A stretch of 64,000 bases of DNA from IMG/VR virus record IMGVR_UViG_3300020020_000001, positions 16,171 to 80,170 of that record. One strand, given 5' to 3'. The notes under the pieces are model-generated. The model ran no database searches and was not told the origin of the DNA. It worked only from the letters and a program-made list of their open reading frames with translations. The position numbers and the translations under genes were made by a program. Source of the DNA: a virus. Below are positions 35,270 through 42,916 of the stretch, one piece after another. Position 1 is the first letter of the stretch. The number at the start of each line of letters is the position of its first letter.

Positions 35270-36919
35270 TTAGATCCGTCCTGCACTAAAGTTTGCAATG
35301 AGTGACGGTAGGTTGGCGTCGCCACCACACACGTCAAGCATACCACGATCCGACGGGTCGGCAATGGTGAAATCTGTGGCGGTAAGTCCAACAACAACCA
35401 ACTTGGCGTCAATGCCTGTCTTCTGTCGATATGTACGAAGTGCCTGGAATGGGTGTGGACGACCTGCGTACGTTTCGCTGTCTGTAATGACAACGAACGT
35501 GTCTACCGCAATGTTGTTTCGTTCAGCAAACAACATTGGTAGTGAGCAGTCTGTTGACATGAATGGCCGAGAGACGCGCTTCATCACATCGTTCAGATCC
35601 ATACTTGCAGTTAGACCTAGATCGACAAACTGGCTACCAAACCCATAAACCTGGTAGTACGGCTCAGTGCGCATGATAGTCATGGCCATAGCTGCACCAA
35701 CCTGCGCGCAGTTAAGGTCAATACCCATCGCTGGTGAACCCATTGAACCGGACACATCAAGGGCGAGCATTGTGCGCTTGTTCGCTGGTTCTACATACTT
35801 GAATGCCTTGTAGAAACCTTCGTTCAGCGCCGCAACAATTACTGGATTGGTGTTCCAGTCCTTGACTCGCTGAGTTGTGTAACTATAACCGGGTGGAGGT
35901 ATGTCGCCAGGCTTCTTTGAACGCCAAATCTGACCGTTCTCGTGAACTGTCAGTGCAAGAAGGTACTGGATCGGGTGTAGCTTGGTACGTGCAATCATGC
36001 TTTCAGTTGTGAGTGCTGTTGCTACCTCACGAGTGAATACCATGTCATTGAACGCACCAATACGAGCTAGCCGCGTGATGTTACGGACAAGCGCCTGACC
36101 CTTAAGCTGACCGTTATAGAACAGCTTCTTCCATACTTCAGCATTCTTAAGAAACTGCGTAGGTAGTGCTTCCCATGGTAGGAGTGGATGATCATTCAGA
36201 ACATTTAGTACCGTCTGCACATTTTCCGCACCGGAAACACGATCGAATCCAATAAGAATATCCGACCGCTCTTCAACAGATGCCATGTTAGGTAGAGGCT
36301 TGCCAAGGATAAAGCTACCGACACTCTTGTCAATACCCACAGGGTGTGACAAGCGGAACATGTCACGGTGGGTCCAACCATCACGCTGACGATACTTCAC
36401 AGCCTGGTATGCAACCTGGTCTGGTGTCTTACGCTCATACCAGCTTGCCACCGCAGCACGCTTTGATCGACCCCAACCACCAAGTAGCTCGATGTACTGA
36501 GTAAACTGGAACAGGTGTGTCGAAATGCGAACTACCTTGGCAAAGGCGTCCTTGTTCTTACGCTTGCCGTAAGTGAACAGCGCAGCCATCACGAAGATAG
36601 CAGTGTTGTTACGGTAGGCGCGTCCACTTTCCGAAATCTCTGTTACTACCTGCTCGACTAATTCCTCATCGCGTCCGATCATCTCAATGACGAAGTTGAT
36701 GTTCTCCTTGGTGAGCGGCTTCTCCTGTACGTAGTAGGTACCCTTGTCAGTACCAAGAATCAGGAAACGCTCTAGCCGTGTGCGATCTGAGACCTGGAAG
36801 ACAAATCCACCAGCGTTGTTGACAACCTGGTCTGGACGTGCCTGCACTGTCTGTGGGGTATCCTGAATTTCCATCAGTGCTTCGGTGATGGCGTCACGGT
36901 TCTTATCTGGCTTAGACAT
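35270..36919 (-). CDS. rsr: Ro60/Rsr-like TROVE-vWA RNA-binding protein
   Basis: 549 residues; start at MSKPDKNRDAITEAL (36919), preceded by GAAAGGGG. Residues about 20-365 are TROVE HEAT-like repeats, including the conserved KYRQRDGWTHRDMFRLSHP segment that in Ro60 helps form the RNA-binding ring. From about 380 a von Willebrand A domain with a complete MIDAS (DVSGSMGS, residues 389-396; ITDSETYAG later) follows. In bacteria Rsr binds Y RNAs and acts in RNA quality control with PNPase. Here it lies among tRNA genes and Y-RNA-like genes; its leader carries a Y-like stem. Confidence 0.92.
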   Translation of the reverse strand: MSKPDKNRDAITEALMEIQDTPQTVQARPDQVVNNAGGFVFQVSDRTRLERFLILGTDKGTYYVQEKPLTKENINFVIEMIGRDEELVEQVVTEISESGRAYRNNTAIFVMAALFTYGKRKNKDAFAKVVRISTHLFQFTQYIELLGGWGRSKRAAVASWYERKTPDQVAYQAVKYRQRDGWTHRDMFRLSHPVGIDKSVGSFILGKPLPNMASVEERSDILIGFDRVSGAENVQTVLNVLNDHPLLPWEALPTQFLKNAEVWKKLFYNGQLKGQALVRNITRLARIGAFNDMVFTREVATALTTESMIARTKLHPIQYLLALTVHENGQIWRSKKPGDIPPPGYSYTTQRVKDWNTNPVIVAALNEGFYKAFKYVEPANKRTMLALDVSGSMGSPAMGIDLNCAQVGAAMAMTIMRTEPYYQVYGFGSQFVDLGLTASMDLNDVMKRVSRPFMSTDCSLPMLFAERNNIAVDTFVVITDSETYAGRPHPFQALRTYRQKTGIDAKLVVVGLTATDFTIADPSDRGMLDVCGGDANLPSLIANFSAGRI

Positions 36920-37184
36920 TTCGACCCCTTTCAAAGGGATATGTTACTGTCAGTTTGATGAGATTTTTGATTGATTTCCATAGTTCTTGGCATCTTATGG
37001 TAAGTACAGATGCTATGATCATCCAACGTGGGCAGCTAACGATGAATTGTAACATCTCACCTTGTAAGTGCATACATCTGGTACACCAATCGCCATCAAT
37101 ATCTTCGTCGCAAGGCTGTCCATCGTGGGATAAGTCAATTGCTTTCATGAGTTGTTGTGCTTCATAGTGGAAATTTCTCGTCAC
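36912..37184 (-). CDS. Small Cys protein after tRNA-Ser(TGA), upstream of rsr
   Basis: GTG one base after the tRNA-Ser(TGA) discriminator. 90 residues: MTRNFHYEAQQLMKAIDL, CDEDIDGDWCTRCMHLQG (possible zinc site), then a hydrophobic helix. It ends 8 bases inside the rsr start, so the two are coupled. A partner of the Ro60 protein is possible but unproven. Confidence 0.55.
   Translation of the reverse strand: MTRNFHYEAQQLMKAIDLSHDGQPCDEDIDGDWCTRCMHLQGEMLQFIVSCPRWMIIASVLTIRCQELWKSIKNLIKLTVTYPFERGRNV
36915..36951 (-). promoter_or_regulatory. Y-RNA-like stem over rsr ribosome-binding site
   Basis: On the minus strand AACATATCC, a short hairpin (CCCTTTGAAAGGG) and GGGGTCGAAATGTC follow each other. 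These are the two conserved Y-RNA strands of this phage (CATATCC and GGGTCGAA) in swapped order, closed by GACA/TGTC. The hairpin holds the Shine-Dalgarno and the start codon lies in the stem. Binding of Rsr here would block its own translation; this is an inference. Confidence 0.5.
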
Positions 37185-37532: not shown

Positions 37533-37659
37533 GTTGTCGGATATGGTTATGTCATCGTGTCGATTCGCAGGGAAGGACTCCAACCCTCATAACTGTCACG
37601 CAGACATTGCACTAGCCGTTGTGCTACCTGGGATAAACGATGTACTTCGACCCGACTAC
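37533..37659 (-). ncRNA. Y-RNA-like RNA 2 (with tRNA-like core)
   Basis: Minus-strand RNA: closing stem GTAGTCGG/CCGACAAC, then GTCGAAGTA, inner stem CATCG/CGATG, TTTATC, and 3' ACCATATCC. The loop (37564-37633) folds as an almost complete tRNA in normal order: acceptor TCCCAGG/CCTGCGA, D-arm GCACAACGGCTAGTGC, an anticodon-like arm and T-arm with TTGGAGT. It would score as a degenerate tRNA-Arg(GCG), but the frame around it is Y-like. Confidence 0.65.
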
Positions 37660-37677
37660 TCTTGTAAGTTTTTGTAA

Positions 37678-38040
37678 CTATGGAGTTACTGGAGGAACTG
37701 TTGGCTCTGGCGATTCGGCTTCTACATCTGCGTCTAGTGCTTCGATGTTTGCATTTGCTGTTGCTAGGTTGTCTGCTACACCCTGAAGTGCCTCTTCAGC
37801 AGCCGCAGTGTCACCCTGAGCTAGTAGACGCTGAACGTCCTTTACTAGTTCAGCAGTGTTGGTGAGGAGAGTACCCACACCAGTCACAACCGCGCTTACC
37901 TTATCGTCGAGAGCCGACACTTTTGCCTCCATCGCAGTAATGGCCGAAGCCAATTCCTGTGCATACTCAAGATGAACATGCACTTCCGTTACTGTGGGTG
38001 GAAGTCCTGACAAGTTTAGGTTCAAACTAATGTCAGCCAT
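37678..38040 (-). CDS. Coiled-coil protein (120 aa)
   Basis: MADISLNLNLSGLPPTVTEV leads into two helical stretches (LASAITAMEAKVSALDDKVSAVV; TAAAEEALQGVADNLATANANIEALD) with heptads, then an acidic Pro-rich tail. A structural or tail-tip-like role is possible; function unknown. The Y-RNA 1 lies just upstream. Confidence 0.55.
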   Translation of the reverse strand: MADISLNLNLSGLPPTVTEVHVHLEYAQELASAITAMEAKVSALDDKVSAVVTGVGTLLTNTAELVKDVQRLLAQGDTAAAEEALQGVADNLATANANIEALDADVEAESPEPTVPPVTP

Positions 38041-38063
38041 CCATTTTCCCTTCTATCAAAGGG

Positions 38064-38161
38064 TTGGTTGGATATATTTAAGGTAGTCAGAAGTGGTTCT
38101 AATTCACTAGCCTTGCGGCTTTTGCAGTGTATAGATAACTGACTACTTTCGACCCAACCAA
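38064..38161 (-). ncRNA. Y-RNA-like RNA 1
   Basis: 98 nt on the minus strand: TTGGTTGG/CCAACCAA closing stem, GTCGAAA, inner stem GTAGTCAG/CTGACTAC, GTTATC, and 3' CTTAAATATATCC. The GTCGAAAG strand is close to the published consensus of bacterial Y RNA Ro-binding stems. The loop has a GCC-GCAA-GGC hairpin and an AGTG/CACT hairpin, without an obvious T-arm. It sits 8 bases after the NlpC/P60 gene. Confidence 0.75.
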
Positions 38162-38168
38162 AAACTAT

Positions 38169-38975
38169 CTATACGTATCTTCGAGCTGCCATGAATGCGT
38201 ATAGGTTGTTCTGGATCACGCCTGTACGAGAGCTAGCCGCTTCAACAACTCTATTGTTACCAATGTAAATCATCACGTGTCCATTGTATGGCCAAACGAT
38301 ATCACCAGGCTGTAGGTTAGCTTTCGATACCGCGTATCCTTGACCAGAGTATAGAATGCTCTGATCCTGATGTGGTACTGAAACGCCAACCTGACGAAGG
38401 GCTGCCTGCACTAGTCCTGAACAGTCATAGGCATTAGGTCCACCGGCAGCCCATACATAAGGCTTGCCAACCTGTGCTAGAGCAAAGTTCACAATCGTTT
38501 GTGCTCTGCTTGACTGTGGGGCTGGCGCTGCGCCACCACTACGTGATGCTACCGGCGGTTGTGCACGAACCGGTGCGCTACCCTGTGGGGCTGCGCTAGG
38601 CACCTTTACTTGCTGACCTACCTGAATGCTATCACAGTTGGCAATTCCATTTGTCTGGCATAGACCTGGCCAGTATCCGGGAGTGCCGTAGAACGCCTGA
38701 CTGATATTCGAAAGACTACCGTACTGTGAAGGATAGGCAGTAACTGAAACCAACGAGTCGCTTGCAACTACTACTGTTGCTGACGTCTTGGTCACTTCAC
38801 TGTTCGTCGTCTTAACTACGTTTGCAGTCCCCAACTGCACAACTTGCGGTGCCTGTGGGCTACTCAGTGCTGCGTTAGCAACACCAGTTGGCGTAGCCAA
38901 GATTCCTAGGGTGATTAGGCCACACATCATGGTAGCGACTAATCGGCTTCTGTTCATTCTCATCCTTTTTCGCAT
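38169..38975 (-). CDS. Secreted NlpC/P60 endopeptidase with LysM
   Basis: 268 residues: signal peptide (MNRSRLVATMMCGLITLGILATP, cleavage near TGVANA), a LysM-like domain at about 55-125 (YGSLSNISQAFYGTPGYWPGLCQTNGI), a Pro/Ala linker, then NlpC/P60. The peptidase has YDCSGLV (catalytic Cys), DIVWPYNGHVMIYIG (His). The family cleaves stem peptides of cell walls. The upstream leader has an 8-bp hairpin (AAAGGCGA/TCGCCTTT, 38976-39025). A role in host wall remodelling or spread of lysis is likely. Confidence 0.9.
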   Translation of the reverse strand: MRKRMRMNRSRLVATMMCGLITLGILATPTGVANAALSSPQAPQVVQLGTANVVKTTNSEVTKTSATVVVASDSLVSVTAYPSQYGSLSNISQAFYGTPGYWPGLCQTNGIANCDSIQVGQQVKVPSAAPQGSAPVRAQPPVASRSGGAAPAPQSSRAQTIVNFALAQVGKPYVWAAGGPNAYDCSGLVQAALRQVGVSVPHQDQSILYSGQGYAVSKANLQPGDIVWPYNGHVMIYIGNNRVVEAASSRTGVIQNNLYAFMAARRYV

Positions 38976-39083
38976 GCAAAGGCGAAGCTGTGCATTGGAA
39001 TAGGTTGGAAGATGATCGCCTTTGCTCCAAATGGAATATTCTATTGTGCGAAAACCCTCAGCCCTTGGTTTTCTTGGAGGCCC

Positions 39084-39194
39084 TCAACGGTTTGGCTGCC
39101 TCTCCAACACCTCATACGGTTTCAGTGTCCAACTCCCGTACAAAACGCATATCGCTGCACATAGAACGGGGGTAATATATGCGAGGGACACCAT
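39084..39194 (-). CDS. Small membrane peptide (36 aa)
   Basis: ORF MVSLAYITPVLCAAICVLYG then WTLKPYEV: one hydrophobic helix. It lies between tRNA-Phe and the NlpC/P60 gene. Support is limited to an open frame and hydrophobicity. Confidence 0.35.
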   Translation of the reverse strand: MVSLAYITPVLCAAICVLYGSWTLKPYEVLERQPNR

Positions 39195-39204
39195 GCGTAA
39201 AACG

Positions 39205-39276
39205 TCGTTCCACTAGGAATCGAACCTAGGTCCCACCAGTTTCAGTGGTATGCTCTGCCAACTGAGCTATAGAACG
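39205..39276 (-). tRNA. tRNA-Phe(GAA)
   Basis: CGTTCTA/TGGAACG acceptor, loop CTGAAAC with anticodon GAA, T-arm CCTAGG TTCGATT CCTAG. No encoded CCA. Confidence 0.88.
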
Positions 39277-39281
39277 TTGAC

Positions 39282-39398
39282 CTACGGATCATCTTGATGT
39301 TTCCAACATCTGAATTGGTAAGTCATACCTCTAAAGCACCATTTGTGATAGCACATAGCATATAGTGGATAATACTTTGTTAACCATTTCTTAATCAT
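39282..39398 (-). CDS. Small basic protein (38 aa) after tRNA-His
   Basis: ATG one base after the tRNA-His discriminator. ORF MIKKWLTKYYPLYAMCYHKW and a Cys/Trp-rich end (CFRGMTYQFRCWKHQDD). Function unknown. Confidence 0.5.
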   Translation of the reverse strand: MIKKWLTKYYPLYAMCYHKWCFRGMTYQFRCWKHQDDP

Positions 39399-39399
39399 G

Positions 39400-39472
39400 G
39401 GTGGCTGGTGGAATTCGAATCCACGAATGACTAGGTTCACAACCTAGCTCCTGATGCCTCCGGATCAGCCAC
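39400..39472 (-). tRNA. tRNA-His(GTG)
   Basis: GTGGCTG/CAGCCAC acceptor with discriminator C, loop TTGTGAA with anticodon GTG. The base at -1 is T in the genome; the G(-1) would have to be added. No encoded CCA. Confidence 0.88.
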
Positions 39473-39480
39473 ACTTTATA

Positions 39481-39852
39481 CTAAGCTAGTTTCATCTCCC
39501 ATGACGACGTGGTGTCATTGAATGGCCAGAAGTTATTATCTGTATCGCCACCATTCCACACCGTGATGGTACCACCCCAACAACCGGCCTCTGAGTAGAA
39601 GAGTACCTTGTAGCTTGGTGTCTTGTTGATCGCCGAAGAGATCACGTCATTCCAACCACCAGGCATACCTTGACAGTTGTTCAGTCCAACCCATGGTAGT
39701 GTCCACTGGGAACCGTTACCATTCGAGTCTGTATAGGCACAGATATGTGATGCTGGACATGAGGAGTAGGCTGCATGAGCAGGAGAAGCTGCAATGCCAA
39801 TCATGATTGCAAACATCACGAGTACAGCACCAACACGCTTAGTTGTTCTCAT
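39481..39852 (-). CDS. Secreted protease-inhibitor-like protein (family I36)
   Basis: 123 residues: signal peptide (VGAVLVMFAIMIGIAASPAHA), then a beta-gamma-crystallin-like domain with Cys pairs: CPASHICAYTDSNGNGSQW, NNCQGMPGGWNDVISSAINK and LFYSEAGCWGG. This matches the peptidase inhibitor I36 (SMI) type known from Streptomyces. If active it would inhibit metalloproteases outside the cell. A secreted inhibitor encoded by a phage is unusual. Confidence 0.75.
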   Translation of the reverse strand: MRTTKRVGAVLVMFAIMIGIAASPAHAAYSSCPASHICAYTDSNGNGSQWTLPWVGLNNCQGMPGGWNDVISSAINKTPSYKVLFYSEAGCWGGTITVWNGGDTDNNFWPFNDTTSSWEMKLA

Positions 39853-39877
39853 TTGTGTCCTTTCGTAGTTTGTTACG

Positions 39878-39958
39878 TACCTATGACAGGATTCGAACCT
39901 GCAAGCCTTTCGGCACTAGGACCTAAACCTAGCGTGTATCCCGTTCCACCACATAGGC
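39878..39958 (-). tRNA. tRNA-Leu(TAG)
   Basis: GCCTATG/CATAGGT acceptor, loop TTTAGGT with anticodon TAG, long variable arm (TGCCGAAAGGCTT), T-arm CAGG TTCGAAT CCTG. No encoded CCA. Confidence 0.9.
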
Positions 39959-39962
39959 ATAA

Positions 39963-40094
39963 TGTAGTAAGGTACTGCACGAACACCATTCGTAACAGTT
40001 AGTCAGCCTCACCTAGTTAGTATACACTTCACTAGGCAGTATTGGGACCCCTGTGGGGAAGCACGCTCAACTCTCTTTCGAGAGACCTTACTAC
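39963..40094 (-). ncRNA. Multibranch RNA between tRNA-Leu(TAG) and tRNA-Ser(GCT)
   Basis: A perfect 10-bp stem GTAGTAAGGT/ACCTTACTAC closes 132 bases. Inside, CTCTC-TTTC-GAGAG (a GAAA tetraloop on the RNA strand), CCCC-TGT-GGGG, CCTAGT/ACTAGG and TACTGC/GCAGTA pair. The element fills the space between the two tRNAs (1 and 4 bases left over), so RNase P and RNase Z could free it. Contains one CCTGTGGG. Confidence 0.5.
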
Positions 40095-40095
40095 G

Positions 40096-40180
40096 CAGAA
40101 GATGTAGGATTCGAACCTACGAAGGTATTACCCTTACTTCCTTAGCAGGGAAGCCCGATCAACCACTCTGGCAATCTTCC
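40096..40180 (-). tRNA. tRNA-Ser(GCT)
   Basis: GGAAGAT/ATCTTCT acceptor, loop CTGCTAA with anticodon GCT, long variable arm, discriminator G. No encoded CCA. Confidence 0.9.
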
Positions 40181-40186
40181 ATAGTA

Positions 40187-40236
40187 GTCGGTAGGCGACC
40201 CCCAAGAGTGTTAGCCGCACTCTTGCACCTACCGAC
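40187..40236 (-). ncRNA. Hairpin RNA between tRNA-Ser(GCT) and tRNA-Gly
   Basis: Two-part stem GTCGGTAGG/CCTACCGAC (9 bp) and AAGAGTG/CACTCTT (7 bp) in a 50-base segment 6 bases from the tRNA-Ser 5' end. Function unknown; may be an RNA processing or stability element. Confidence 0.4.
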
Positions 40237-40274
40237 CGTGTCCTACCAACCATCGTGCGCACCCTGGAGATGCG

Positions 40275-40345
40275 AACCGACAGTGAGTTTCGAACTCACT
40301 CAATCATCTTGGAAGGATGATATGCAACCAATACATCATGTCGGC
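40275..40345 (-). tRNA. tRNA-Gly(TCC)
   Basis: GCCGACA/TGTCGGT acceptor, loop CTTCCAA with anticodon TCC, T-arm GTGAG TTCGAAA CTCAC. No encoded CCA. The 3' end of Y-RNA 3 lies 3 bases upstream of this tRNA. Confidence 0.88.
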
Positions 40346-40348
40346 AAG

Positions 40349-40459
40349 TGATGTGGATATGTTGTTAGAAATCGGGGTATGTCTACCAAGACGACACGGA
40401 ATTGAACCGCACTGTTCTAAATATCAGTTAGATAACCGATTTCAATCCGACCCACATCA
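40349..40459 (-). ncRNA. Y-RNA-like RNA 3 (with T-arm)
   Basis: Minus-strand RNA: closing stem GATGTGG/CCACATC, GTCGGATT, inner stem GAAATC/GATTTC, GGTTATC, and 3' CTAACAACATATCC. The loop holds a T-arm (TGCGG TTCAATT CCGTG) and a TCTAA/TTAGA hairpin. Its 5' end is 4 bases after the DUF397 gene, and its 3' end abuts tRNA-Gly, so RNase P could form the 3' end. Confidence 0.75.
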
Positions 40460-40463
40460 ACGC

Positions 40464-40649
40464 TTATACGTCAAACTCTCCAGCTTTTACACCTTCAATA
40501 AAGGTGCGCCACTCAGCAATGGTGAATACATTGTACTGATCTGGCTTGTCACTATTGCGAATTGCGACACTCGTGTCACCAAGAGAAGCTTCAACACAGT
40601 TTGCGGTATCGCATCTGCCAGATTTAATCCAGTATAACTGGTCAGTCAT
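40464..40649 (-). CDS. DUF397 protein
   Basis: 61 residues with the typical DUF397 pattern: LYWIKSGRCDTANCVEAS, VAIRNSDKPDQ and FTIAEWRTFIEGVKAGEFD. This family is almost limited to Streptomyces and relatives, where each gene stands beside an XRE-type regulator and acts as its partner. No XRE gene is next to it here, so a decoy or anti-regulator of a host pair is possible. Confidence 0.85.
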   Translation of the reverse strand: MTDQLYWIKSGRCDTANCVEASLGDTSVAIRNSDKPDQYNVFTIAEWRTFIEGVKAGEFDV

Positions 40650-40668
40650 TGTCTATTACGCTTCCAAT

Positions 40669-41760
40669 CTAAGCATTGACCGTGCTCAGGTTGCTATCTA
40701 GGTAGTTGCCAGACCAGTCAATGCCTGAGTGGTTACAAGCATCGGTGAGTCCATAAGCAGCGGAGTAATCGTGACCAGCCTTAGCAGGTACAAACCGGTT
40801 TTTACGTACAACAAAACCAATACCTTGCTCTGGACAGTACACGGTGTAAGCACCGCCACCAAAGAAATTGTTCTCAACCAGCCACATGTTATTTGCGGTT
40901 GGGTTTGTGATGATGGCTGACGTCATTGGATTCAGTTGTAACATTGTGTTGTGTCGAATAACAACGTTGTTACCACCCTGTGACTGAATACCATCACCAT
41001 GTGGAGCATTGCCGCGACCTTGTTCAGAACCTCGAATGAATGACTCAGTGATTTGTGAGTTGCTGTTCATTTCCAACCCGTTCTCACACTTGTCAATATA
41101 CATACGAGTGGCGCGGAAGTTCGGTCCAGCAAGTGCATTACCATGTGCGTAGTTACACGTAATTTCCGTGTCGCTAATTGTAGCTACGCCAGTTGCGGGT
41201 ACTCTATCCGTGTTGATACCGTGGTAGCAAGAGTCTGACACTAGCAGCTTCACGTTGCGAATAACTACATTCGCCGCGAAGATGTAGATACAACCATTGT
41301 GTTCCCGGTTTTCTAGTACAGTACCAGCTACTGTTATATTGATAACACCACTCGAACTGGTAAGCACTGTTCCAGTTGGGACACCAGTGTTCACGGCCGT
41401 TGGATACCCACAGGCACCAGGATTCGACCAACAATTGGTCGGTGTTGGACTAGGTGTTGTTACAGTAGGCGAAGGAGTAGGACTAACTGTCTGACTCGCT
41501 GACGCTGACGGGCTTCCTGTGGGTGTGGTCAGAAGTGCAATGATTGCATTCTGATCATTGATACAGTTGACGGCCCGTGTCCGTTGCGAACTACTTGTTG
41601 TATTACTCGCAAGTAGTTGACAGTTTGCCTTAGCATCCTCTGCTAACTGTAACCGGCTCGATACGGACGATGGCGCAGCGCTAGCTAGCGACGACCAACC
41701 GAGCATAATGATTACTGCACCACCAATTACTGATGCAGCAACCTTACTATTCCGGTGCAT
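40669..41760 (-). CDS. Secreted beta-helix protein (pectate-lyase-like fold)
   Basis: 363 residues: signal peptide (KVAASVIGGAVIIMLGWSSLASA), a coiled region, a Ser/Thr/Pro linker (PTPSPTVTTPSPTPTN), then right-handed beta-helix repeats (INITVAGTVLENREHNGCIYI; NVVIRNVKLLVSDSC; GDGIQSQGGNNVVIRHNTML; NMWLVENNFFGGG). The fold is that of carbohydrate-binding or -cleaving proteins. A secreted product expressed during infection, not a tail part, because of the signal peptide. Confidence 0.75.
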   Translation of the reverse strand: MHRNSKVAASVIGGAVIIMLGWSSLASAAPSSVSSRLQLAEDAKANCQLLASNTTSSSQRTRAVNCINDQNAIIALLTTPTGSPSASASQTVSPTPSPTVTTPSPTPTNCWSNPGACGYPTAVNTGVPTGTVLTSSSGVINITVAGTVLENREHNGCIYIFAANVVIRNVKLLVSDSCYHGINTDRVPATGVATISDTEITCNYAHGNALAGPNFRATRMYIDKCENGLEMNSNSQITESFIRGSEQGRGNAPHGDGIQSQGGNNVVIRHNTMLQLNPMTSAIITNPTANNMWLVENNFFGGGAYTVYCPEQGIGFVVRKNRFVPAKAGHDYSAAYGLTDACNHSGIDWSGNYLDSNLSTVNA

Positions 41761-41813
41761 CCATACTCCTTAACTCGAAAACATTGGAGTAATGTCTGAA
41801 CCCCGTACAATAT

Positions 41814-41887
41814 TGGCATGAGTTGTAGGATTTGAACCCACACAAAAGACTTTGGAGGCCTTTATGCTACCGTTACATCAAACTCAC
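41814..41887 (-). tRNA. tRNA-Trp(CCA)
   Basis: GTGAGTT/AACTCAT acceptor, loop CTCCAAA with anticodon CCA, T-arm GTGGG TTCAAAT CCTAC. The CCA end is encoded (41814-41816). Not a UGA-reading (TCA) form. Confidence 0.9.
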
Positions 41888-41968
41888 TAGGTGTGACCAC
41901 AGCTCAGACACTATGGCCACACTTGGTTACCTATTTCTCCGCCCGCTAGAGCTAGAAAGAAGGAACCG

Positions 41969-42040
41969 CACCCTCAGCAGGATTCGAACCTGCACTTATA
42001 GCTTCGTAGGCTATTACTCTGTCCGTTGAGTTATAAGGGT
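41969..42040 (-). tRNA. tRNA-Arg(ACG)
   Basis: ACCCTTA/TGAGGGT acceptor, loop CTACGAA with anticodon ACG (A34 to be deaminated), T-arm GCAGG TTCGAAT CCTGC. No encoded CCA. Confidence 0.88.
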
Positions 42041-42044
42041 TTAT

Positions 42045-42117
42045 GTGGTGGGCTTCTCATTAACTGTGCTTCCCCACAGGGGTTACCTCGCATGGCGAAC
42101 CTACACCCGCCCACCAC
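42045..42117 (-). ncRNA. Closed hairpin RNA before tRNA-Arg(ACG)
   Basis: GTGGTGGGC/GCCCACCAC (9 bp, perfect) closes 73 bases that include CCCC-ACA-GGGG and CGC-ATG-GCG hairpins and an AGGTTCGCC strand. Its 3' end is 4 bases from the tRNA-Arg 5' end. It contains an 18-base reverse copy of 40047-40064 (see findings). Confidence 0.45.
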
Positions 42118-42316
42118 TCAAGTGTACGGCATGGTTGGTAACTAGTCACTGAGACATTTATGGTCCCTCCCAAGATTTACGTCGGGGGAGGGATTCCGAC
42201 GTTTCCACTAATGGCCTGAGGAGACTATATCATGGAAACTTAAGTACGTAGTGACTGGGCAGTACTGTGTGCATCCCGGCAACATAGTGCAGCAACCACT
42301 ACGCACGACTATGAAA
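42118..42316 (-). other. Non-coding structured stretch
   Basis: No convincing ORF. Nested pairings are visible: AGTCACT (42144) with AGTGACT (42252), CCCTCCC with GGGAGGG, and ACGTCGG/CCGACGT (42179-42202). It lies between the closed hairpin RNA and Y-RNA 4. It may be one larger RNA. Confidence 0.3.
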
Positions 42317-42407
42317 GCTTTGGATATGCTTAACTGAATCGAATTGTCAGCGCTGCAATGCGCCGTCCTGTGAATGGGTGGATAACCGATTCATTCCGAC
42401 CCAAAGC
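42317..42407 (-). ncRNA. Y-RNA-like RNA 4
   Basis: 91 nt on the minus strand: closing stem GCTTTGG/CCAAAGC, GTCGGAAT, inner stem GAATC/GATTC, GGTTATC, and 3' AGTTAAGCATATCC. Loop with GCGC-ATTGCA-GCGC hairpin. No T-arm in this copy. Confidence 0.7.
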
Positions 42408-42437
42408 CCCGGTGCCGTTGGCCTCCGGCAGAAAATA

Positions 42438-42582
42438 GATTCGGATATGTATTTGTAATTGGAAATGGCTTGCGCCAAGGCAATTGCTCTACCAATTGAG
42501 CTATACGACGATAAATCGTCGCAGTAGGACTCGAACCTACAACCCATTGCTTCCAGATAACCAACTACGGCCGACCCGAACC
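42438..42582 (-). ncRNA. Y-RNA-like RNA 5 (circularly permuted tRNA mimic)
   Basis: 145 nt on the minus strand: closing stem GGTTCGG/CCGAATC, GTCGGCC, inner stem GTAGTTGG/CCAATTAC, TTATC, and 3' AAATACATATCC. The loop has T-arm GTAGG TTCGAGT CCTAC (42524-42540), then a closed acceptor hairpin CGACGA-TTTA-TCGTCG (42506-42521), then D-arm TAGCTCAATTGGTAGAGCA (42485-42503). This is a tRNA elbow with the acceptor end closed, as reported for bacterial YrlA. Confidence 0.8.
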
Positions 42583-42667
42583 TGAAACTTGAATGCGTAT
42601 CTCGTCCTCCACTATACGCTTACCACACCCATAACGGCACGTGTGGCATCCACTTTTTCATAGCTAA

Positions 42668-42743
42668 GACACGGATATATACCACTAGACAAGGAGTTTT
42701 ATCTCCAAATGATAGGATAACCCTTGTCAATCCGACCCGTGTT
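42668..42743 (-). ncRNA. Y-RNA-like RNA 6 (short form)
   Basis: 76 nt on the minus strand: closing stem AACACGG/CCGTGTC, GTCGGATT, inner stem GACAAGG/CCTTGTC (7 bp), GTTATC, and 3' TAGTGGTATATATCC. The loop is short, without tRNA-like arms. It is preceded on its 5' side by GACAGAGGGCTGAC, which recurs at 44056-44069. Confidence 0.7.
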
Positions 42744-42777
42744 TGACGTCAGCCCTCTGTCTGACAATGATGTAGTA

Positions 42778-42916
42778 TCGTGGATATGTATTGAGATCGG
42801 GAGTTTCACCTATTACTAGGCTAGCCGGTACCGTCCGGCGTATGGTGTTGGTCCGTGTCGCGGAGCACCATGGTGGAATTGAACCATCGATAACCGATTA
42901 CTCTGCCGACCCACGA
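42778..42916 (-). ncRNA. Y-RNA-like RNA 7 (with closed acceptor-like arm)
   Basis: 139 nt on the minus strand: closing stem TCGTGG/CCACGA, GTCGGCAG, inner stem ATCGG/CCGAT, TTATC, and 3' CTCAATACATATCC. The loop has a T-arm-like GATGG TTCAATT CCACC, then ATGGTG...CACCAT closed arm and a GCCGG/CCGGC arm. Its 5' end overlaps the last codons of the HNH gene. Confidence 0.7.

What the first reader, a model, noticed from the sequence alone, without database searches (positions are those of the whole stretch)
37533..42916. Seven-member Y-RNA-like family around a phage Ro60 gene
Seven minus-strand RNAs (37533, 38064, 40349, 42317, 42438, 42668, 42778) share one architecture with little sequence identity elsewhere. 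Each has a closing stem, then GGGTCG(A/G), an inner stem, then (G/T)TTATC, a loop, and a 3' strand CATATCC or TATATCC. Both stems differ completely in sequence between copies but stay paired, which is strong covariation. Four carry T-arm-like sequences in the loop, and one (42438) has T-arm, closed acceptor hairpin and D-arm in circularly permuted order, as reported for bacterial YrlA. A Ro60/Rsr gene is 1-6 kb away. Known bacterial systems usually have one or two Y RNAs; seven with varied loop modules suggests a phage-specific Ro/Y toolkit that could bind several RNA partners or mimic tRNA.
Basis: partly seen in the sequence, partly recalled or inferred. Interest (0 to 1): 0.95.

Follow-up and report, generated by a model that had tools for sequence, protein, structure and literature searches.

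The report
Seven phage Y RNAs beside Ro60
This phage carries the RNA-ring protein Ro60 and seven real Y RNAs that probably bind it, as many bacteria and phages do, and a Y-RNA-like hairpin at the start of the Ro60 message suggests that the protein may control its own production.

Summary
Seven minus-strand RNAs share the Ro60-binding architecture GGGUCGR–inner stem–UUAUC–loop–inner stem–AUAUCC, closed by an outer helix, with strong compensatory change. One scores as YrlA over the full Rfam model (40 bits, below the curated cut-off). The neighbouring protein is a Ro60 by TROVE and vWA domains and by similarity to Deinococcus Rsr and Xenopus Ro. Its residue at the Y-RNA contact His187 is kept.

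The claim of a phage-specific set, with bacteria having one or two, fails. In 80 bacterial Ro60 loci 44 have at least two copies and 25 at least three (maximum six); Ro60 phages carry up to six. Seven is the highest count seen. The copies mix permuted tRNA mimics, a canonical-order tRNA and plain loops.

Outside the coordinates, 38 of 175 Ro60 leaders (0.44 expected), this phage's included, carry the Y-RNA stem in circularly permuted form, a median of 12 nt before the start codon, with the same covariation. This suggests that Ro60 represses its own translation and that Y RNAs titrate it. Ro60 binding, transcripts and regulation are untested.

The parts
35270..36919 (-). Ro60/Rsr gene (TROVE + vWA, MIDAS DVSGS); likely start ATG at 36919, the longest ORF begins with TTG at 36934
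   Evidence: Pfam TROVE 2.7e-35 and vWA_Ro60 1.9e-60; 2nvo Rsr 3.2e-92, 1yvp Xenopus Ro 3.4e-91; K180, R184, H197 invariant in 13 phage/viral Ro60s
36921..36942 (-). Hairpin AUAUCC-CUUUGAAAG-GGGUCGA in the Ro60 leader, ending 1 nt before ATG: Y RNA lower stem in circularly permuted order (proposed Ro60 operator)
   Evidence: 38 of 175 Ro60 leaders against 0.44 expected; flank specificity 31/64 against 32/3030
37533..37659 (-). Y RNA 1, nearest to Ro60; loop holds a canonical-order tRNA cloverleaf (Arg GCG by ARAGORN)
   Evidence: Rfam tRNA 32.3 bits at 37633-37564
38064..38161 (-). Y RNA 2, loop without tRNA-like arms
   Evidence: Rfam Y_RNA RF00019 20.1 bits, E 1.6, at 38159-38062 (weak alone, but at the same ends)
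40349..40459 (-). Y RNA 3, loop with a T-arm and a closed acceptor-like hairpin, no clear D-arm
42314..42410 (-). Y RNA 4, simple hairpin loop
42437..42583 (-). Y RNA 5, YrlA type: T-arm, closed acceptor, D-arm (permuted tRNA)
   Evidence: Rfam YrlA RF02553, 40 bits, model positions 1-114 of 114
42669..42742 (-). Y RNA 6, minimal loop
42778..42916 (-). Y RNA 7, T-arm-like, closed hairpin and D-arm-like hairpin; overlaps the 3' end of an HNH gene
   Evidence: 6/200 shuffles reach its score

Best explanation
A phage-encoded Ro60 RNP system. Shown by sequence: a Ro60 gene with seven co-directional Y RNAs 0.7 to 6 kb upstream, interleaved with tRNA genes. Each has the Ro60-recognition element (outer helix GGGU/AUCC, unpaired CGR/AU, inner helix, UUAUC) and a different loop. 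Inferred: the RNAs bind the outer face of the Ro60 ring through the conserved stem. They stabilise Ro60 and gate its cavity, and the loops act as adaptors that present Ro60 to different RNA enzymes, such as tRNA-recognising enzymes for the tRNA-like loops and host PNPase as in Deinococcus RYPER. Also inferred: free Ro60 binds the permuted Y-like hairpin over its own start codon and represses its translation, so Ro60 output follows the Y RNA supply. The confidence given is for the identity as Ro60-binding Y RNAs; I put the adaptor role at about 0.5 and the feedback at about 0.45.
For: Motif excess and covariation. The compensatory switch GGGU/AUCC to GGGC/GCCC occurs in the conserved stem (24 UA and 6 CG at that pair, none unpaired). 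Ro60 identity and kept Y-binding position: with H187S losing Y RNA binding (PMC11277228). YrlA full-length match. Strand-specific association with Ro60: 208 same-strand hits (total of the per-locus counts) and no opposite-strand hits in 160 loci, with 2 hits in the reversed-sequence control. Leader hairpin. Published precedent: Rsr binds the lower stem of Yrl RNAs and Y RNA tethers Rsr to PNPase (PMC4726728); YrlA has a tRNA-like domain (PMC7790460).
Against: No transcript or binding data. The 3' strands were found by a search that rewards pairing, so pairing percentages are inflated; the shuffle control corrects for this only per copy. Copies 42916 and 37659 are weak. No local promoters or terminators stand out. 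Leader folds are no more stable than shuffles (z about -0.3 to -1.0). The partners of the loops are unknown.
Confidence: 0.85

Rival explanations
1. The tRNA-like Y RNAs are decoys: they occupy host anticodon nucleases or tRNA-modifying enzymes and protect the phage's own tRNAs, with Ro60 only stabilising them.
For: At least 22 tRNA genes lie on the same strand. Canonical-order cloverleaf in copy 37659 and in other Ro60 loci. A competitive-inhibitor role for YrlA was proposed in PMC7790460.
Against: Three of the seven loops have no tRNA-like arm. The same mixed arrays occur beside Ro60 in bacterial genomes. Anticodon loops are partly degenerate.
Confidence: 0.25
2. The array is mainly a titration device: many Y RNAs soak up Ro60 and so release repression of the Ro60 message through the leader hairpin. 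Loop content is secondary.
For: Leader hairpin with the same recognition letters and covariation in 38 of 175 loci, median 12 nt before the start codon.
Against: Most Ro60 leaders examined lack it. Many of the 38 are related Streptomyces phages, so they are not independent. Loops carry recurrent tRNA mimicry that titration would not need.
Confidence: 0.3
3. The elements are decayed tRNAs or processing hairpins of a long tRNA operon transcript, and the Y-like letters are coincidence.
For: All lie between tRNAs on one strand. ARAGORN calls one a tRNA.
Against: Motif excess, covariation, YrlA match, strict association with Ro60 across phages and bacteria.
Confidence: 0.03

Closest known systems
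YrlA / bacterial Y RNAs (Rfam RF02553; Salmonella, Mycobacterium smegmatis, Deinococcus)
   Same: Ro60/Rsr neighbour, lower-stem recognition element, tRNA-like domain in permuted order in copy 42583.
   Different: Seven copies, dispersed among tRNA genes over 5 kb; scores below Rfam's curated cut-off; most loops are not YrlA-like; one holds a canonical-order tRNA.
Ro60/Y RNA loci of Streptomyces phages (Stanwilliamsviridae) and mycobacteriophages
   Same: Y RNAs upstream of Ro60, same strand, among tRNAs; up to 6 copies per genome.
   Different: In Gilson and three relatives one copy lies about 28 kb downstream of Ro60. The window phage has a family-A DNA polymerase at most about 34% identical to known phages, so its backbone differs from theirs (Trina, with a similar Ro60, has DnaE).
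Vertebrate Y RNA (RF00019) bound to Ro60
   Same: Same order: GG(U/G)YCGA, inner stem, UUAUC (human Y sequence recalled from memory); one copy matches the model weakly.
   Different: No significant match; no poly-U tail or replication domain looked for.
RYPER (Rsr-Y RNA-PNPase, Deinococcus)
   Same: Ro60 and Y RNA components.
   Different: PNPase partner not shown; no PNPase among the window proteins searched against Pfam.
Listeria phage CKA15 putative Rsr and abundant ncRNAs (PMC12282133)
   Same: Phage Ro-like gene next to highly transcribed non-coding regions.
   Different: There the protein call rests on HHPred and the passages read give no Y structures.

Membership tests
Bacterial Y RNA | Encoded near a Ro60/Rsr gene | tested here: met
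   0.7 to 6 kb upstream, same strand
Bacterial Y RNA | Ends paired in a lower stem with the conserved Ro60-recognition element | tested here: met
   weak for 42916 and 37659
Bacterial Y RNA | At least one RNA of the set has a tRNA-like domain | tested here: met
   42583 (YrlA match); 37659 (tRNA model 32.3 bits)
Bacterial Y RNA | Binds Ro60 in cells | not testable with these tools
   no experimental data
Rfam YrlA RF02553 | Score at or above the curated threshold of 69 bits | tested here: not met
   best copy 40 bits, full length; not filed as an RF02553 member
Ro60/Rsr protein | TROVE and vWA domains | tested here: met
Ro60/Rsr protein | Y-RNA-contact residues kept (Xenopus K170, R174, H187) | tested here: met
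   K180, R184, H197 in the alignments; role of H187 from PMC11277228, of K170/R174 from memory
RYPER complex | Y RNA tethers Ro60 to PNPase | not testable with these tools
   partner unknown

The most novel reading that the evidence does not exclude
Ro60 of many phages and of some Nocardia represses its own translation by binding a circularly permuted copy of the Y RNA lower stem placed at its start codon. Multi-copy Y RNAs with different loops both titrate this control and load Ro60 onto different RNA enzymes.
Probability: 0.45. Interest if true: 0.72.

Novelty: new variant of a known kind. Interest (0 to 1): 0.55.

Why it matters
It extends Ro60/Y RNA to a phage backbone far from those known. 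It shows that large, mixed Y RNA sets are common in both bacteria and phages rather than rare. It also gives a direct, cheap test of how Ro60 levels are set: the leader hairpin reads like a Ro60 site, and I found no report of such feedback in the open papers searched (subscription papers were not held). The canonical-order tRNA inside some Y RNA loops adds a second form of tRNA mimicry beside the permuted YrlA form.

Tried and rejected
Rfam at curated thresholds finds only tRNAs. A simple outer-helix finder mis-set many 3' ends and was replaced by one that scores both helices. The eighth motif site (28051) was rejected, since it has no arms. No promoter or terminator excess. A single-protein viral scan found one relative, so an alignment was used. 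The key papers on bacterial Y RNAs (Chen 2013, 2014) are not in the library. Leader hairpin candidates followed by UUAUC, or lacking the A(U/C) flank, were set aside as Y RNAs or chance. Structure prediction of Ro60 was not run because sequence evidence was sufficient.

Full report
Setting. The window is positions 16171-80170 of an 80,170-base virus record that may be incomplete. It encodes a family-A DNA polymerase with a uracil-DNA-glycosylase domain, a DUF3987 protein with a RepB-primase-like domain and an SNF2 helicase. The polymerase is at most about 34% identical to listed phages. Ro60 (window 35270-36919, minus) is nearest to Streptomyces phage Ro60s at 57%, and up to 62% in uncultivated viruses. 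It has TROVE and vWA domains, matches Rsr 2nvo and Xenopus Ro 1yvp, and keeps K180/R184/H197. By counting in the alignment these fall on Xenopus K170/R174/H187. H187S loses Y RNA binding (PMC11277228).

The seven RNAs. GGGTCGR..TTATC gives 8 sites against 0.18 expected; seven have both helices. Shuffling the downstream part shows five copies never reached in 200, two at 2/200 and 6/200, and the decoy at 41/200. Cores of the seven: 95.5% of cells paired, 12 of 16 pairs changed on both sides, 0/500 shuffles. Thirty phage cores behave the same, and sliding the partner by one base destroys the signal. Within the conserved motif itself GGGU/AUCC switches to GGGC/GCCC in other genomes. Independent models: YrlA full length at 42567-42453, 40 bits, E 2e-6, with the order T-arm, acceptor hairpin, D-arm visible in the alignment; SM23, Blueeyedbeauty and Gilson copies also match YrlA.

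Loops. 42583 is a permuted tRNA. 42916 and 40459 have a T-arm and a closed hairpin. 37659 holds a canonical-order tRNA (32.3 bits) whose first acceptor bases overlap UUAUC. The same arrangement occurs in the related viruses L246 (tRNA model 44.2 bits) and L248 (55.9 bits), in the Chloroflexi locus L220 and in Phabba. 42410, 42742 and 38161 have no tRNA arms.

Copy number. Whole-record motif counts: Gilson 6, Blueeyedbeauty 6, Sham 5 on the Ro60 strand, TunaTartare 5 on the Ro60 strand, Warpy 4, Phabba 2 plus 4 GGGCCG. With one detector that all seven window copies pass, 80 bacterial Ro60 loci give 0:18, 1:18, 2:19, 3:17, 4:6, 5:1, 6:1, and 80 viral loci give 0:35, 1:21, 2:11, 3:9, 4:3, 6:1. 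There were no opposite-strand hits and 2 hits in reversed controls. Among loci with two or more copies, 27 of 44 bacterial and 19 of 24 viral ones mix loops with and without T-arms. These loci are the best matches to phage Ro60s, not a random sample. So large mixed sets are common in part of this family, not a phage invention. What is more typical of phages is dispersal among tRNA genes: the median upstream distance is 877 nt in viruses and 280 nt in bacteria.

The Ro60 leader. Just before the Ro60 start codon the window reads A(C)AUAUCC-CUUUGAAAG-GGGUCGA-A-AUG: the Y RNA 3' strand, a loop, then the 5' strand, that is the lower stem permuted. A search for this form (A[UC], four pairs, loop 2-16, GGG[UC]CG[AG], no UUAUC after it) finds it in 38 of 175 distinct leaders against 0.44 expected from the rest of the same loci, a median of 12 nt before the start codon. 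Given the bare stem, both recognition flanks are present in 31 of 64 leader stems against 32 of 3030 elsewhere. The variable pair follows the Y rule (AUAUCC with GGGUCG, AUGCCC with GGGCCG), even in genomes such as Gilson whose Y RNAs use the other form. Carriers include Streptomyces phages, the window's own group, other uncultivated viruses and Nocardia genomes. In the window's minimum-energy fold a further four pairs (GACA/UGUC) enclose the hairpin and take in the last two bases of the start codon, but total stability is ordinary. Caveat: in the window an upstream ORF (36912-37184) runs through this hairpin, so coupling to its translation is possible, and its coding constraint could explain part of the sequence there.

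Reading. Identity as Y RNAs is well supported; the adaptor role of the loops is inferred from YrlA and RYPER. The feedback step is my inference from motif, position and covariation, with no binding data. Many leader carriers are related phages, so the excess is not 38 independent events.

Noticed in passing
window 36921-36942, minus: Circularly permuted Y-RNA-like hairpin at the Ro60 start codon, found in 38 of 175 Ro60 leaders.
   Followed up: yes
window 37564-37633, minus: ARAGORN's tRNA-Arg(gcg) lies inside the loop of a Y RNA and is probably not a free tRNA gene; its acceptor start overlaps the UUAUC motif.
   Followed up: yes
NC_048720.1 67008-67080; ON645339.1 68289-68350; PQ655446.1 26711-26777: Annotated phage tRNAs (His, Ser, Asn) overlap Y RNAs and look mis-annotated.
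   Followed up: partly
window 36912-37184, minus: A 90-aa ORF ends within the Ro60 start region (its stop overlaps the second and third Ro60 codons), suggesting translational coupling.
   Followed up: no
window 38169-38975, 39481-39852, 40669-41760: Genes for likely secreted proteins lie among the Y RNAs: NlpC/P60 peptidase, I36-type inhibitor, and a 363-aa protein without Pfam match.
   Followed up: no
L050 7271-7871 and L307 4707-5512: Six Y RNAs packed in 0.6 to 0.8 kb beside Ro60 in uncultivated viruses.
   Followed up: partly
L026, L028, L031, L034: A short Y RNA about 28 kb downstream of Ro60, immediately before a tRNA gene, conserved in four Streptomyces phages.
   Followed up: partly
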